Made by a program: the position numbers and the translations under genes. Source: Myxococcales bacterium (GTDB lineage Bacteria > Myxococcota > Myxococcia > Myxococcales > 40CM-4-68-19). From it: a stretch of 32,915 bases of DNA. The notes beneath the pieces are model-generated. The model ran no database searches and was not told the origin of the DNA. It worked only from the letters and a program-made list of their open reading frames with translations. Below, piece by piece: positions 8,162 through 31,912 of the stretch (positions within the stretch are counted from its first letter, which is position 1; every line of letters starts with the position of its first letter). The stretch covers positions 1 through 32,915 of the forward strand of contig JAIVGS010000011.1 in NCBI GenBank assembly GCA_020201435.1. Reading direction: 5' to 3'.

Positions 8162-8172
8162 TTGCGAGAGCG

Positions 8173-8340
8173 GAAAAGAGAACGAGAACGAGAACGAGAA
8201 CGAGAACGAGAACGAGAACGAGAAGGAGAAGGAGAAGGAGAAGGAGAACGAGAAGGAGAACGAGAAGGAGAAGGAGTTTTGGAGAAGGAGAACGAGAAGG
8301 AGAACGAGAAGGAGAAGGAGAAGGAGTTTTGGAGAAGGAG
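8173..8340 (+). repeat. Purine-rich GAGAAC/GAGAAG tandem repeat tract
   Basis: About 170 bp of near-continuous hexamer repeat follows the pfk stop codon. It begins with about seven GAGAAC units (to about 8220), then changes to GAGAAG mixed with GAGAAC. A larger unit ending in AAGGAGTTTTGGAGAAGGAG is present twice (around 8272-8290 and 8322-8340), so there is a higher-order duplication. The plus strand is almost all purine. Open frames crossing it (Glu-Asn and Arg-Glu repeats) are artefacts of the period of six. Such tracts change length by slippage and can adopt unusual structures. No function is visible. Confidence 0.9.
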
Positions 8341-8434
8341 CAGGCTCGCGCCAGCCCTTTGGGCTGTCACTCCGCCTGCATTCTGGACAAAGAAAACATC
8401 AAGCTCGCTGCGCTCGCGCTTTTGGGTTCGGATC
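8341..8434. other. Gene-free spacer with short hairpins
   Basis: Together with the flanking repeat and hairpin this completes a 335-bp stretch without a gene. A 6-bp perfect hairpin (8352-8357 with 8361-8366, CAGCCC-TTT-GGGCTG) could be a weak terminator. Around 8401-8421 there is an imperfect palindrome of the AGCTCGCTGCGCTCGCGCT type. I see no ORF with a plausible start and no promoter. Confidence 0.5.
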
Positions 8435-8513
8435 GTCGTCCTTCGTTCGGCATCGTTCGGCCTCCCGCCTTCGGCTTTGTTTGAGGAGGCCGAACGATGC
8501 CGAACGGGACGAC
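8435..8513 (+). promoter_or_regulatory. Long hairpin covering the ribosome-binding site and start codon of the IVS-family gene
   Basis: A 22-bp perfect inverted repeat (8444-8465 with 8485-8506) has a 19-nt loop and is extended, after a 2-nt bulge (8442-8443), by 7 more pairs (8435-8441 with 8507-8513). The right arm contains GAGGAGG (8483-8489), a strong Shine-Dalgarno sequence, and the ATG at 8497-8499 with correct spacing. In RNA the left-arm CCTCC would pair with GGAGG. If the region is transcribed, translation of the downstream gene should be shut off by structure. Alternatively it is a mobile palindromic element that happens to supply the start. Confidence 0.7.
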
Positions 8514-8847
8514 TGGGTTGCTTCACGAAAAGCTGATCGCGTGGCAGGTCGCGTGCGAGTTGCTGCGCGTGGTCAGGGATGCACGGATTTCTGACGCGAA
8601 ATTGCGCGATCAGGCGATGAGGGCGGCGCAGAGCGCGTGTCTGAATATCGCCGAGGCCAACGGGCGGGATTCGCCGGCGGATCGGAGGCGGGTGTTTGCG
8701 ATTGCGCGTGGTGAAGCCGCTGAGGCTGCCGCCGCCGTGCAGGTTGCGGCGATTTCGGGGTGCTGCGCGGAGCCCATTGCTGACGAGGCTCGTCGGATCG
8801 GCGGCAGGGTGGCGGCGCTGCTCTCGGGACTGATTCGGTCGATGTAA
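8497..8847 (+). CDS. Four-helix-bundle protein of the 23S rRNA intervening-sequence (IVS) family
   Basis: A 116-residue helical protein. The family pattern is clear: 'LIAWQVACELLRVV' in helix 1, 'LRDQAMRAAQSACLNIAEANGR' in helix 2 (consensus L-xx-Q-xx-RAA-S-xx-NIAEG-xx-R), and 'RRRVFAIARGEAAEAAAAV' in helix 3. Members form small pentameric four-helix bundles and are found inside 23S rRNA intervening sequences or as stand-alone chromosomal genes. Their function is not established. The ATG at 8497 sits inside a long hairpin; an in-frame TTG at 8518 is an alternative start just outside the stem. Only 1 bp separates its stop from the start of the FHA activator gene. Confidence 0.85.
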   Translation: MPNGTTGLLHEKLIAWQVACELLRVVRDARISDAKLRDQAMRAAQSACLNIAEANGRDSPADRRRVFAIARGEAAEAAAAVQVAAISGCCAEPIADEARRIGGRVAALLSGLIRSM

Positions 8848-15322: not shown

Positions 15323-15510
15323 AGCCGTGCCCGTCCCCGTCCCCGTTTTCGAGCACGTGCCCGTGCGGGTGCAGGTGCCCGTGCTGGTGAGCGGGCACGT
15401 CCACGGGCACTGGCACGTGCCCCCGAGCACGGGCACGGCCACTCCCACGTGCCCCCGAAAACGGGCACGGGCACTGGCACGTGGCCCCCAAAACGGGCAC
15501 GGGCACAGCT
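15323..15510. repeat. GTGCCC/GGGCAC-rich region with three 32-bp tandem units
   Basis: The whole gap between the convergent genes exbD and pcnB is low-complexity CCCGTGCC/GGGCACGG sequence. Its right part consists of three head-to-tail 32-bp units, 15414-15445, 15446-15477 and 15478-15509, each starting CACGTG and containing a stem of the type GTGCCC...GGGCAC. The left part (15328-15413) contains degenerate copies of the same hexamers in both orientations. RNA from either strand would fold strongly, so it could act as a two-way terminator. Confidence 0.85.
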
Positions 15511-22166: not shown

Positions 22167-22251
22167 TGGGACACATTAACGGGGACACATTACCGGTTTC
22201 CGGGGAAATTCGGAGGCTTGCGGTTTAATGTGTCCCCGTTAATGTGTCCCA
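22167..22251. repeat. REP-type inverted repeat with GGGGACACATTA core
   Basis: A 26-bp perfect inverted repeat (22167-22192 with 22226-22251) around a 33-nt centre. Each arm contains the GGGACACATTA word twice (GGGACACATTAACGG, then GGACACATTA). It begins 4 bp after the astA stop and ends 20 bp before the astD ATG. GGGGACA-type palindromes are commonly REP elements dispersed by Y1 (REP-associated) transposases; none is encoded here. As RNA it would fold into a stable hairpin between two operon genes. Confidence 0.85.
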
Positions 22252-29310: not shown

Positions 29311-30244
29311 ATGCGGTTTGTCTGCGTGTTCCTGTGCCTGTGCGGCTGCACGAACAAGGCAGGACCGCCGTCGAGCGCGTCGAAAGCGCGTCTGCCCGCC
29401 CGGATCGTGATCGGCGCGACCTTGCCGGTGAGCACTGCCGAGGGGCAGACGGCGCGCTTCTATCGCGAAGGGTACGAGTTGGCCGTCGAGGAAGCGAACC
29501 GCGCCGGCGGAGTGAACGTCTCCGGGCGCCGCATCCCGGTGGTGCTCGAGTTTCTCGACGACGCCGGCGATCCGTCGGGAGCTGCGGCGCAGATTCGGAC
29601 GCTGGTCGACGAGAAGAAAGCCTCGTTCCTGCTCGGCAGCGCGTCGGGTGCGGTGGTCGAGGCGCAGAGCGCGCTGGCCGAGGGGCGGCGGATCCCGTAC
29701 GTCACCGCGGCGGGCGAGAGCAAGGCGCTGTTCGAGCGCGGTCTCAAGTACTTCTTCGGCCTTCAGGCGCCGGTGCAGCTCCTCGCCTACACGCAGATGC
29801 GCTGGATCGACGAGCAACAGAAAGCGCGCCGGCTGCCGACGCCGCTCGTTCGGCTTTCGCGGCTTGAGCTACATCCTCTCCGCCGTTTGGTGGAGCGCGC
29901 GGCTCGCCAAGCGCGGCTTGAACAAGCAGTTCGCCGACGAGTTCAAGGAGACGTACCACCGCGATCCCGACTGGTACGGCGCGCTCGCCTACGAAGCAGG
30001 CCGCGCGCTCCTCGCCGCGATCGCTTCGTCGGGCGACGCGAAATCCGATTCGGTCCGAACCCAGCTCGCGACGATGAAGATGGAATCGATCCTGCCCGGC
30101 GGCCGCCTGTTGTTCGGCCCCGACCAGCAGGCGATCTACCCGTTCGTCGTCCAGCAGAACCAGCCCGACGGCTCTTCACCCGTCATCTTCCCGAACGACG
30201 TCGCCGAAAGCCCCGGCGTCCCCGTCAACCCGAGGTGCCACTAG
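29311..30244 (+). pseudogene. Broken ABC-type (branched-chain amino acid-like) solute-binding lipoprotein
   Basis: Two halves of one periplasmic binding protein lie in different frames. The first (29311 to about 29844) has a lipoprotein signal with lipobox LCGC (Cys13), then 'IVIGATLPVSTAEGQTARFYREGYELAVEEANRAGG' and 'DDAGDPSGAAAQIRTLVDEKKASFLLGSASGA', typical of LivJ-type receptors. After about residue 178 it loses similarity. The second half, shifted by one frame (about 29850-30244), resumes with 'GLSYILSAVWWSARLAKRGLNKQFADEFKETYHRDPDWYGALAYEAGRALLAAI', the C-terminal lobe. The intact family is about 370-400 residues; the two parts make about 310, so roughly 100 codons or so of the middle are missing. 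Internal deletion plus frameshift, or an assembly collapse. Confidence 0.85.
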
Positions 30245-30333
30245 TCGGAGATTCGGGGACACAATACTCAACTCCGCTAAAGGGCCGTCATCCCAAGGTC
30301 GGAAATAAGTACTGTGTCCCCATAACTCCGACT
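30243..30333. repeat. REP-type imperfect inverted repeat with GGGGACACA core
   Basis: Arms of 34 bp (30243-30276 and 30300-30333) are inverted and imperfect. The ends AGTCGGAG/CTCCGACT and the core GGGGACACA/TGTGTCCCC are exact; nine or fewer inner positions differ. The centre is 23 nt. The element starts within the TAG stop of the broken binding-protein gene and ends in the stop of nuoN on the other strand. It is related in core to the palindrome at 22167-22251. Confidence 0.8.
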
Positions 30334-31912
30334 AACGGCCGAAGGCGGTTGCGGCGGATTGGGTGAGCACGGCGAAGGCGCCGGGTTGCACGCCCATCCA
30401 GATCACGAGCAACGCGCAGCCGGCGATGGCGAGGCCGGCGGTCAGGAGGCGGCCGCCCTGGATGGCGTCGGGCTTCGCCTCGGGAACCATGTACACGTAC
30501 ACGACGACGCGCAGGTAGTAGTACAGGCCCGCGACGGACGTGAGCACGCCGAAGATCGCCAGCGGCGCGAGGCCGGCCTCGATCGCCGAACGGAAGACCA
30601 CCAGCTTCGCCATGAAGCCCGCCGTCGGCGGCACGCCGGCGAGGGAGACCATGAACAGCGACATCGCGGCAGCGAGGCCGGGATGACGCTCCGACAGCCC
30701 CGACCAGGACGAGAGATCGTCGCCGAGGCCCGACAGCGCGAGCTTGCGCTCGATCACCGCGACCACCGCGAACGCGCCGATGACGGTCACGCCGTATGAG
30801 GCGAGGTAGAAGAGCAGTCCCTCGACCGCGTCGGCGCGGGCGGTCCCCGCCATCGCGGCCACCGCGACGAGCAGGTACCCGGCGTGGGCGATCGACGAGT
30901 ACGCCAGCATCCGCTTCACGCTCCGCTGCGGAATCGCGAGCAGGTTCCCGGTCAGCATCGTCAGGAGCGCGAGCCAGACTACGAGCCGACCCCAGACATG
31001 CGACTCGCCGAAGCCGCCCACAAGGATCCGGACCAGCGTCGCAAACGCCGCCGCCTTCACGCCGGCGGCCATGAACCCGGTCACCGGCGCCGGCGCGCCG
31101 TCGTAGACGTCCGGCACCCACATGTGGAACGGCACCGCCGCGACCTTGAAAGCGAACCCCGAGGCGAGCAGCGCGACCGACGCCGCGAGCAGCGTCCCGG
31201 CTCCGGGCGCCGCCGCTCCGCGAACCGCGGCGGCGACGTCGGCGATGCGCGTCGATCCCGTGGCGCCGAAGGCGAGCGCTGCCCCGTAGAGGAAGATCGC
31301 CGAAGCGAACGATCCGAGGATGAAATACTTGAACGCCGCTTCCGCCGGCCGCTTGCCGCGGCGCAGATACGCGCAGAGCGCGTAGACCGCGAGCGACATC
31401 ACTTCCAGCGAGACGAAGATGACGATCAGGTCGGTCGCCTGAGCGAGCAGGCACATGCCGGCGCTGGAGAAGAGCGCGAGCGCGTAGAACTCGCCGCGGG
31501 TCGCGCGCAGCGACTCGAGATACGAGAAGGCGATGACGCAGGAGAGGAGCAGTGATCCGCACACGACCGCCGCGATCACCCGCGCGAACCCGTCGCTCAC
31601 CGCGGCGCCGGAAAAGAGCGACATCGTCGGGTCGCCGATCTGCGCCAGCGCCGCCCACAGACCCGCTGCTGCAATCGCCGCCGCGAGCCAGGCCTGGTAA
31701 CGGCGATCCGGGGCCGGCTCCGGCGGAGGCGGCGCGACGTCGGCCTGCGGCGGCAGTTTTCTCTGCGCGTCCGCTGCGGGGCCGGTCGTGCTGCCGAGCT
31801 GCGACGGTTTCACCGCCCGTAAAAAGACCTCGCTGGTCAGGAGCACCAGCGCGCCGATCGAGAGGATCAACGCCGGCAGCACACCGTACAGATCGCTGGG
31901 GTTGAAATTCAT
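30332..31912 (-). CDS. nuoN: NADH-quinone oxidoreductase subunit N
   Basis: A 526-residue antiporter-like membrane subunit of complex I. It shows many hydrophobic helices and the family blocks 'LEVMSLAVYALCAYLRR', 'EAAFKYFILGSFASAIFLYG', 'GFAFKVAAVPFHMWVPDVYDGAP' and 'KRMLAYSSIAHAGYLLV', including the membrane-embedded Glu and Lys residues used in proton transfer. An unusual Pro-rich loop (about residues 37-75) is inserted after the first helix. The ATG at 31912 overlaps the nuoM stop by 4 bp. It is the last gene of the nuo operon; its stop lies in the REP-type element. Confidence 0.95.
   Translation of the reverse strand: MNFNPSDLYGVLPALILSIGALVLLTSEVFLRAVKPSQLGSTTGPAADAQRKLPPQADVAPPPPEPAPDRRYQAWLAAAIAAAGLWAALAQIGDPTMSLFSGAAVSDGFARVIAAVVCGSLLLSCVIAFSYLESLRATRGEFYALALFSSAGMCLLAQATDLIVIFVSLEVMSLAVYALCAYLRRGKRPAEAAFKYFILGSFASAIFLYGAALAFGATGSTRIADVAAAVRGAAAPGAGTLLAASVALLASGFAFKVAAVPFHMWVPDVYDGAPAPVTGFMAAGVKAAAFATLVRILVGGFGESHVWGRLVVWLALLTMLTGNLLAIPQRSVKRMLAYSSIAHAGYLLVAVAAMAGTARADAVEGLLFYLASYGVTVIGAFAVVAVIERKLALSGLGDDLSSWSGLSERHPGLAAAMSLFMVSLAGVPPTAGFMAKLVVFRSAIEAGLAPLAIFGVLTSVAGLYYYLRVVVYVYMVPEAKPDAIQGGRLLTAGLAIAGCALLVIWMGVQPGAFAVLTQSAATAFGR

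What the first reader, a model, noticed from the sequence alone, without database searches (positions are those of the whole stretch)
8435..8513. Near-30-bp hairpin locks up the Shine-Dalgarno and start codon of an IVS-family gene
The right arm of a 22+7 bp stem contains both GAGGAGG and the ATG at 8497, and the left arm carries the complementary CCTCC. Such a stable stem should silence translation unless opened by a ligand, temperature, a protein or an upstream ribosome. IVS-family proteins have no settled function, and self-encoded RNA control would be new. The alternative is a mobile palindrome that landed at the gene's 5' end.
Basis: partly seen in the sequence, partly recalled or inferred. 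Interest (0 to 1): 0.6.

Follow-up and report, generated by a model that had tools for sequence, protein, structure and literature searches.

The report
RNA lock on a mobile IVP gene
A long hairpin that buries the ribosome-binding site and start codon of a small four-helix protein gene turns out to be a conserved working part of a multi-copy jumping gene cassette found across myxobacteria, so the hairpin and the gene travel together and the hairpin most likely keeps the gene's translation low.

Summary
The hairpin is real (8435-8513, MFE -61 kcal/mol, z -6.9) and holds the SD and ATG 8497 of a PF05635 (23S_rRNA_IVP) gene. It is not a stray palindrome. The genome has 13 IVP loci; nine (window included) carry the same start-codon hairpin, and full-length hairpin copies lie only in front of IVP genes. 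The cassette is mobile: a same-genus genome has 14-17 bp where the window has about 690 bp, and a complete relative has four 92-97% identical cassettes. Across the phylum 69 of 154 IVP loci (21 genomes) have the SD in the 3' arm of a long stem. Arm sequences differ completely between genera while pairing is kept (95.6% Watson-Crick; 43% when arms are re-paired at random). Opening the window's RBS costs 37 kcal/mol (46 control genes: median 10.9, maximum 21.7). The protein is under purifying selection (dN/dS 0.14), so the lock must be opened or leak. Best reading: a conserved cis-acting translational lock, working like those of IS200 and ISPpu9 transposase mRNAs, but on a cassette without a transposase. 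What opens it, and how the cassette moves, are unknown. No RNA-strand wobble bias was seen, so RNA-level selection is inferred, not proven.

The parts
8162..8847 (+). IVP cassette as inserted: tandem array + three hairpins + ORF; right end lies at about the stop codon or within a few bases after it
   Evidence: Empty site in G002: PFK stop and the next gene's ATG are 17 bp apart, PFK and downstream gene aligned on both sides
8171..8339 (+). 5' tandem array of GAGAAC/GAGAAGG units
   Evidence: Sequence; similar arrays at the 5' end of the other copies
8340..8379 (+). hp1: GCAGGC...GCGCCAGCC/GGCTGTCAC...GCCTGC hairpin, found in the other cassettes and, inverted, at the 3' end of some
   Evidence: motif census
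8402..8424 (+). hp2: AGCTCGCTGCGCTCGCGCTTTT segment shared by copies in G000 and G002
8435..8465 (+). 5' arm (outer 7 nt 8435-8441, main arm 8444-8465) with anti-SD CCTCC 8461-8465 and CAT opposite the start codon
8466..8484 (+). Apical loop with a small inner GCC-UUC-GGC hairpin and conserved ...GA just before the SD
   Evidence: 36 of 39 distinct loops end in GA
8485..8513 (+). 3' arm holding GGAGG, spacer, ATG and codons 2-5
8483..8489 (+). Shine-Dalgarno GAGGAGG
   Evidence: Sequence; canonical distance to ATG 8497
8497..8847 (+). IVP ORF, 116 aa, PF05635 four-helix bundle
   Evidence: E 2e-14; AF2 pLDDT 95.8; 2gsc TM 0.80-0.87

Best explanation
The hairpin is an integral, selectively maintained 5' RNA structure of a mobile cassette whose only gene encodes an IVP-family four-helix bundle protein. 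In any transcript that crosses it, SD and start codon are folded into a stem of 22 or more bp, so the IVP is translated only rarely, or only after the stem is opened by something not yet known (candidates: antisense or trans RNA, RNase III or a helicase, or the IVP protein bound to its own leader). This limits expression of a multi-copy selfish element, as RBS-burying hairpins do for IS200 and ISPpu9 transposase mRNAs. Shown here: the structure (by prediction), its linkage to the gene, its conservation by compensatory change, cassette insertion and amplification, and purifying selection on the protein. Inferred: transcription across the stem, repression in vivo, the opener, and the link to mobility.
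For: Nine of 13 IVP loci in the genome carry the start-codon hairpin; full-length hairpin copies occur only before IVP genes. SD in the 3' arm with an in-frame start 4-14 nt on in 69 of 154 IVP loci from 21 genomes. 33 distinct arm pairs: 95.6% Watson-Crick against 43% mean and 61% maximum when arms are re-paired; 4893 compensatory against 772 other pairwise differences. RBS opening energy: IVP median 18.6, 43 of 122 above 25; controls median 10.9, maximum 21.7; p 7e-9, per-genome medians p 6e-6. 52 of 72 members of one supported clade are strongly occluded. Other IVP branches (G190, G189, G049, G065/G066) hide the SD with different geometry, usually at the stem base. Hairpins stay near-perfect although copies differ by dS of about 1.5; dN/dS 0.14. 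Empty sites and recent amplification. Precedents: IS200 RBS stem-loop (PMC12594629); ISPpu9 5'-UTR, where weakening the structure raised expression 26-fold (PMC8450116).
Against: No transcript or protein data. Interior G-U and A-C mismatches are about equally common (16 against 22), so there is no sign of selection on the RNA strand in particular. Some related IVP genes (G163, G164) carry a similar hairpin with the same UGA-type loop that does not cover the SD, so occlusion may be a by-product of a recognition hairpin. Template-switch correction of palindromes could keep arms matched without selection. The hairpins in the covariation count were chosen for pairing; the controls are only 46 genes with predicted starts.
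Confidence: 0.6

Rival explanations
1. The hairpin is primarily a recognition structure (for the IVP protein or a mobility enzyme) and translational occlusion is a side effect or an autoregulatory by-product: IVP binds the hairpin with its UGA bulge, as Avd works with RNA in diversity-generating retroelements.
For: Loop end GA conserved in 36 of 39 loops; G163/G164 keep the loop type without covering the SD; fold match to Avd, TM 0.72-0.73 with 4dwl; PF05635-Avd homology noted in PMC10053308.
Against: Other IVP branches hide the SD with unrelated stems and loops (G190, G189), which points to occlusion as the shared property. No RNA-binding test. No reverse transcriptase in G000-G002.
Confidence: 0.22
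2. Read-through protection: the hairpin forms only in transcripts that enter from outside (such as from the co-directional PFK gene), while a promoter inside the element starts in the loop and escapes, as in IS10/IS50 fold-back inhibition.
For: The cassette lies just downstream of and co-directional with PFK; escape of internal starts is known for IS10/IS50 (own knowledge).
Against: A start in the loop would need a promoter in the left arm, whose sequence varies freely among relatives; no sigma-70-like site in the region.
Confidence: 0.08
3. Neutral palindrome: the arms are kept identical by template-switch correction or gene conversion, and the hairpin persists only because deleting it removes the start codon.
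For: Palindromes can be perfected by template switching (own knowledge); four G001 copies lack the hairpin together with its ATG; no G-U over A-C excess.
Against: Placement over SD and start codon across a deep clade and, with other geometry, in other clades; internal mismatches shared by G064/G068/G069 (and similar in G067) copies were not corrected away.
Confidence: 0.1
4. A mobile palindrome that happened to land at the gene's 5' end.
For: The palindrome has further copies in the genome.
Against: Full-length copies sit at IVP starts; gene and hairpin are absent together at the empty site.
Confidence: 0.02

Closest known systems
IS200 tnpA 5'-UTR stem-loop and ISPpu9 tnp 5'-UTR
   Same: A stable hairpin buries the RBS of the single gene of a small multi-copy element and keeps its translation low (PMC12594629, PMC8450116)
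   Different: Here the gene is a four-helix bundle IVP, not a transposase; the stem also covers the ATG and first codons; arms turn over completely between genera; no Asr9-like antisense RNA known
IVS elements of 23S rRNA (Leptospira, Coxiella) encoding S23p
   Same: PF05635-type protein encoded in a small element with paired ends; described as selfish and long suspected to be mobile (PMC4990558)
   Different: The window cassette lies between protein genes, not in rRNA; it has a strong SD locked in a hairpin, whereas the Coxiella IVS has a poor SD lost on RNase III excision
Avd of diversity-generating retroelements
   Same: Same fold (TM 0.72-0.73)
   Different: No reverse transcriptase found in this genome; no template/variable repeat pair sought
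REP/REPIN elements with RAYT (Y1) transposases
   Same: GC-rich hairpin hp1 in inverted pairs at the ends of some cassettes; short ORF-less copies; Y1 transposases abundant in genomes with many cassettes
   Different: The cassette carries an IVP gene and tandem arrays; recognition by RAYT untested, linkage to a RAYT gene not examined

Membership tests
PF05635 23S_rRNA_IVP protein family | Profile score over the curated cut-off | tested here: met
   54.1 bits, cut-off 33.8
PF05635 23S_rRNA_IVP protein family | Four-helix bundle fold like 2gsc/2rld | tested here: met
   AF2 model pLDDT 95.8; TM 0.80-0.87 to 2gsc
23S rRNA IVS element | Inserted in 23S rRNA | tested here: not met
   Lies between a phosphofructokinase gene and an FHA/sigma-54 activator gene
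23S rRNA IVS element | ORF enclosed by terminal inverted repeats | tested here: inconclusive
   40 of 133 IVP loci have inverted flanks above the null's 99th percentile, but the window copy does not, and the G033 arrays are direct
IS200/ISPpu9-type RBS-sequestered element | RBS folded into a stable 5' stem | tested here: met
   By prediction only: 37 kcal/mol to open
IS200/ISPpu9-type RBS-sequestered element | Gene is a transposase | tested here: not met
   Only an IVP ORF
IS200/ISPpu9-type RBS-sequestered element | Stem measured to repress translation | not testable with these tools
   Needs reporter fusions
Diversity-generating retroelement | Reverse transcriptase | tested here: not met
   No PF00078 match in G000, G001 or G002 (drafts, so absence is not absolute)
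REPIN/RAYT system | Y1 transposase in the genome | tested here: met
   21 PF01797 matches in G000
REPIN/RAYT system | RAYT acts on hp1 | not testable with these tools
   Needs biochemistry
Any Rfam family | Match over gathering score | tested here: not met
   Only sub-threshold microRNA-hairpin and IRES matches

The most novel reading that the evidence does not exclude
IVP genes are the core of a widespread class of transposase-less mobile cassettes with tandem-array ends, in which the IVP protein acts with its own structured leader RNA (hp1 plus the start-codon hairpin) as a ribonucleoprotein that controls its translation and takes part in its mobility; 23S rRNA IVSs would be members that landed in rRNA.
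Probability: 0.2. Interest if true: 0.88.

Novelty: new variant of a known kind. Interest (0 to 1): 0.62.

Why it matters
IVP/S23p proteins have been known for decades without a function. A conserved leader hairpin that locks their translation, in a cassette shown to insert and amplify, gives a concrete handle: it predicts what to mutate, what to pull down and where to look for an opener, and it recasts free-standing IVP genes as parts of mobile elements. It would extend RBS-burying self-control from transposase genes to an element with no transposase.

Tried and rejected
Stray mobile palindrome: rejected, since full-length copies are IVP-linked. Start at TTG 8518: not conserved. Translational coupling to an upstream ORF ending at the loop UGA: no such ATG/GTG ORF in any G000 or G001 copy; 16 of 41 overall, not conserved. 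Sigma-70 promoter in the region: none. Known RNA family: none over threshold. RNA-strand wobble test: uninformative, G-U 16 against A-C 22. Reverse-transcriptase-driven mobility in cis: no RT in G000-G002. Plasmid or phage relatives: none found. The MAFFT alignment of hairpins misplaced arm gaps and was replaced by a register counted from the loop. A first control set of 20 genes was contaminated by element-proximal ORFs and was replaced. An out-of-phylum sample could not be run because the tool takes genome handles only.

Full report
OBSERVATION. The stem at 8435-8513 is as described: a 22-bp perfect inner stem (8444-8465 with 8485-8506), a 7-bp outer stem and a 19-nt loop. The RNA fold is -61.1 kcal/mol against -37.0 for shuffles, z -6.9. 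The 3' arm holds the SD and ATG 8497 of a 116-aa PF05635 ORF.

NOT A STRAY PALINDROME. G000 has 13 IVP loci. Searching the hairpin in the genome gives full-length copies at C43, C281, C80, C121, C286, C158 and C72 besides the window, each directly upstream of one of those IVP genes; C131 has a decayed ninth copy. One contig-end fragment (C69) cannot be assigned. The rest are short weak matches.

THE CASSETTE. The copies share one layout: tandem array of GAGAAC/GAGAAGG units, hp1 (GCAGGC..GCGCCAGCC/GGCTGTCAC..GCCTGC), hp2, the start-codon hairpin, IVP ORF, and in some copies an inverted hp1 and array at the 3' end. Over 133 IVP loci with enough flank, 40 have inverted flanking sequence above the 99th percentile of mismatched flanks; the window copy does not, so it lacks a recognisable 3' end. 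Array plus hp1, or deletion derivatives without a full ORF, occur elsewhere in G000 and G002 (L156, L162, L163, L170, L171).

MOBILITY. In G002 the phosphofructokinase stop and the next gene's ATG are 17 bp apart, with both genes aligned; the window has about 690 bp there. A second site, C286, has 929 bp between flank probes in G000 but about 367 in G001 and 472 in G005. In the single-contig genome G033 four cassettes of about 1.6 kb are 92-97% identical at 1.81, 1.86, 3.59 and 4.84 Mb; each has two convergent IVP genes, each gene with its own SD hairpin, and ends in CGACC-type arrays beyond which the flanks differ. How they move is open. No reverse transcriptase was found in G000, G001 or G002. 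Y1 transposase matches number 21, 13, 13 and 20 in G000, G002, G001 and G003 but 1, 4 and 3 in G004-G006, which have no IVP. That is seven genomes, uneven in completeness, and only suggestive.

CONSERVATION OF THE LOCK. Over the phylum 69 of 154 IVP loci, from 21 genomes, have an SD in the 3' arm of a long stem with an in-frame start 4-14 nt on. Arm sequences are unrelated between genera, as in GTTCGTCATCGCCGGCTCCTC (G001), GCCGTCATTGGCGTTTCCCCTT (G009), GTCGTCTCGCATTTCGGCCTCC (G028) and GTTTCCTTCTCCATTTTGTCGACCTCC (G015), and each is matched by its own 3' arm. Over 33 distinct arm pairs, 95.6% of the 18 innermost pairs are Watson-Crick, against 43% (maximum 61%) when 3' arms are dealt out at random; of pairwise differences 4893 are compensatory and 772 are not. 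These hairpins were picked for pairing, so the shuffle, not the percentage, is the evidence. 36 of 39 distinct loops end in GA just before the SD.

An unselected measure agrees. The cost of unpairing start -14 to +3 is 37 kcal/mol for the window; over 122 IVP genes with an SD the median is 18.6 and 43 exceed 25; over 46 control genes the median is 10.9 and the maximum 21.7 (Mann-Whitney p 7e-9; per-genome medians, n 32, p 6e-6). In a tree of 149 IVPs strong occlusion is concentrated in one clade (52 of 72 rows; SH-aLRT 94) spanning several families of the order; columns are few and many forks unresolved. Outside it, G190 (AT-rich), G189, G049 and the G065/G066 group hide the SD with stems of other geometry, usually at the stem base; in the G065/G068 cassettes an hp1-like element lies inside the loop of that stem.

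THE PROTEIN IS USED. Among 15 hairpin-bearing copies in G000 and G002, mean dN is 0.21 and mean dS about 1.5 (near saturation), ratio 0.14. The protein is therefore maintained and must be translated at some time. Stems that stay paired at that synonymous distance, with a non-coding left arm, need selection or active correction. The AF2 model is a confident four-helix bundle (pLDDT 95.8), matching 2gsc and 2rld, and more weakly Avd (4dwl, TM 0.72-0.73).

MECHANISM. The simplest account is a cis-acting translational lock that keeps a selfish cassette quiet, like the RBS stem-loop of IS200 (PMC12594629) and the 5'-UTR of ISPpu9, where weakening the structure raised a fusion 26-fold (PMC8450116). 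Steps shown: predicted structure, linkage, conservation, mobility, purifying selection. Steps inferred: transcription through the stem, repression, opener. At 37 kcal/mol a thermometer or small ligand is unlikely. The left arm varies too freely to carry a conserved promoter, and no sigma-70-like site was found, which weakens a read-through-only model. No conserved upstream ORF enters the loop.

WHAT SPEAKS AGAINST. G-U and A-C interior mismatches are about equal (16 and 22), so the RNA strand is not singled out. G163 and G164 keep the loop type without covering the SD, so the hairpin may be first of all a recognition site. Template-switch correction could help keep arms perfect; against it, G064, G068 and G069 copies, and similarly G067, share an uncorrected internal mismatch. 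Four G001 copies have lost the hairpin with its ATG, as expected for an unstable palindrome.

VERDICT. Observation confirmed, interpretation partly supported, and the object is larger than reported: a mobile IVP cassette family with a conserved translational lock. New variant of a known kind (self-silencing leader of a small mobile element), with a non-transposase gene of unknown function. No earlier description of a start-codon hairpin on free-standing IVP genes was found in the held papers, which do not cover most subscription journals.

Noticed in passing
window 8340-8379 and G000/G002 loci L156, L162, L163, L170, L171: hp1 hairpin (GCGCC...TGTCAC) with tandem array also occurs without a full IVP gene, like non-autonomous or decayed copies.
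   Followed up: partly
L104, L105, L178, L181, L184 and others: IVP genes without a start hairpin are still often flanked by short tandem repeats, inverted about the gene (for example GGTTCCTGGTTCC / GGAACCAGGAACC), as if array ends were a general property of IVP cassettes.
   Followed up: partly
L111, L112, L231, L232 (G033): Two-gene cassettes: two different IVP subfamilies, convergent, each with its own SD hairpin; four near-identical copies in one single-contig genome.
   Followed up: yes
L193-L200 (G190): Divergent IVP pairs share one AT-rich palindrome that serves as SD hairpin for both genes.
   Followed up: no
L082, L084, L085, L089 (G001): Copies that lost the hairpin together with the ATG; C19 and C74:25018 have nearly the same junction in different surroundings, hinting that a hairpin-less copy was moved in trans.
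   Followed up: partly
genus genomes G000-G006: Y1 transposase numbers are high in genomes with IVP cassettes and low in those without (seven genomes only).
   Followed up: partly
window 22167-22251 and 30237-30339: REP-like inverted repeats around the motif GGGGACAC (one with perfect 26-bp arms); a similar GGGGACAC motif in tandem stands next to several IVP cassettes (L038, L039, L156).
   Followed up: no
window 15338-15452: Array of CGTGCCCGTGC-type repeats in inverted order, like the flanks of the IVP copy at C66 but with no IVP gene identified there.
   Followed up: no
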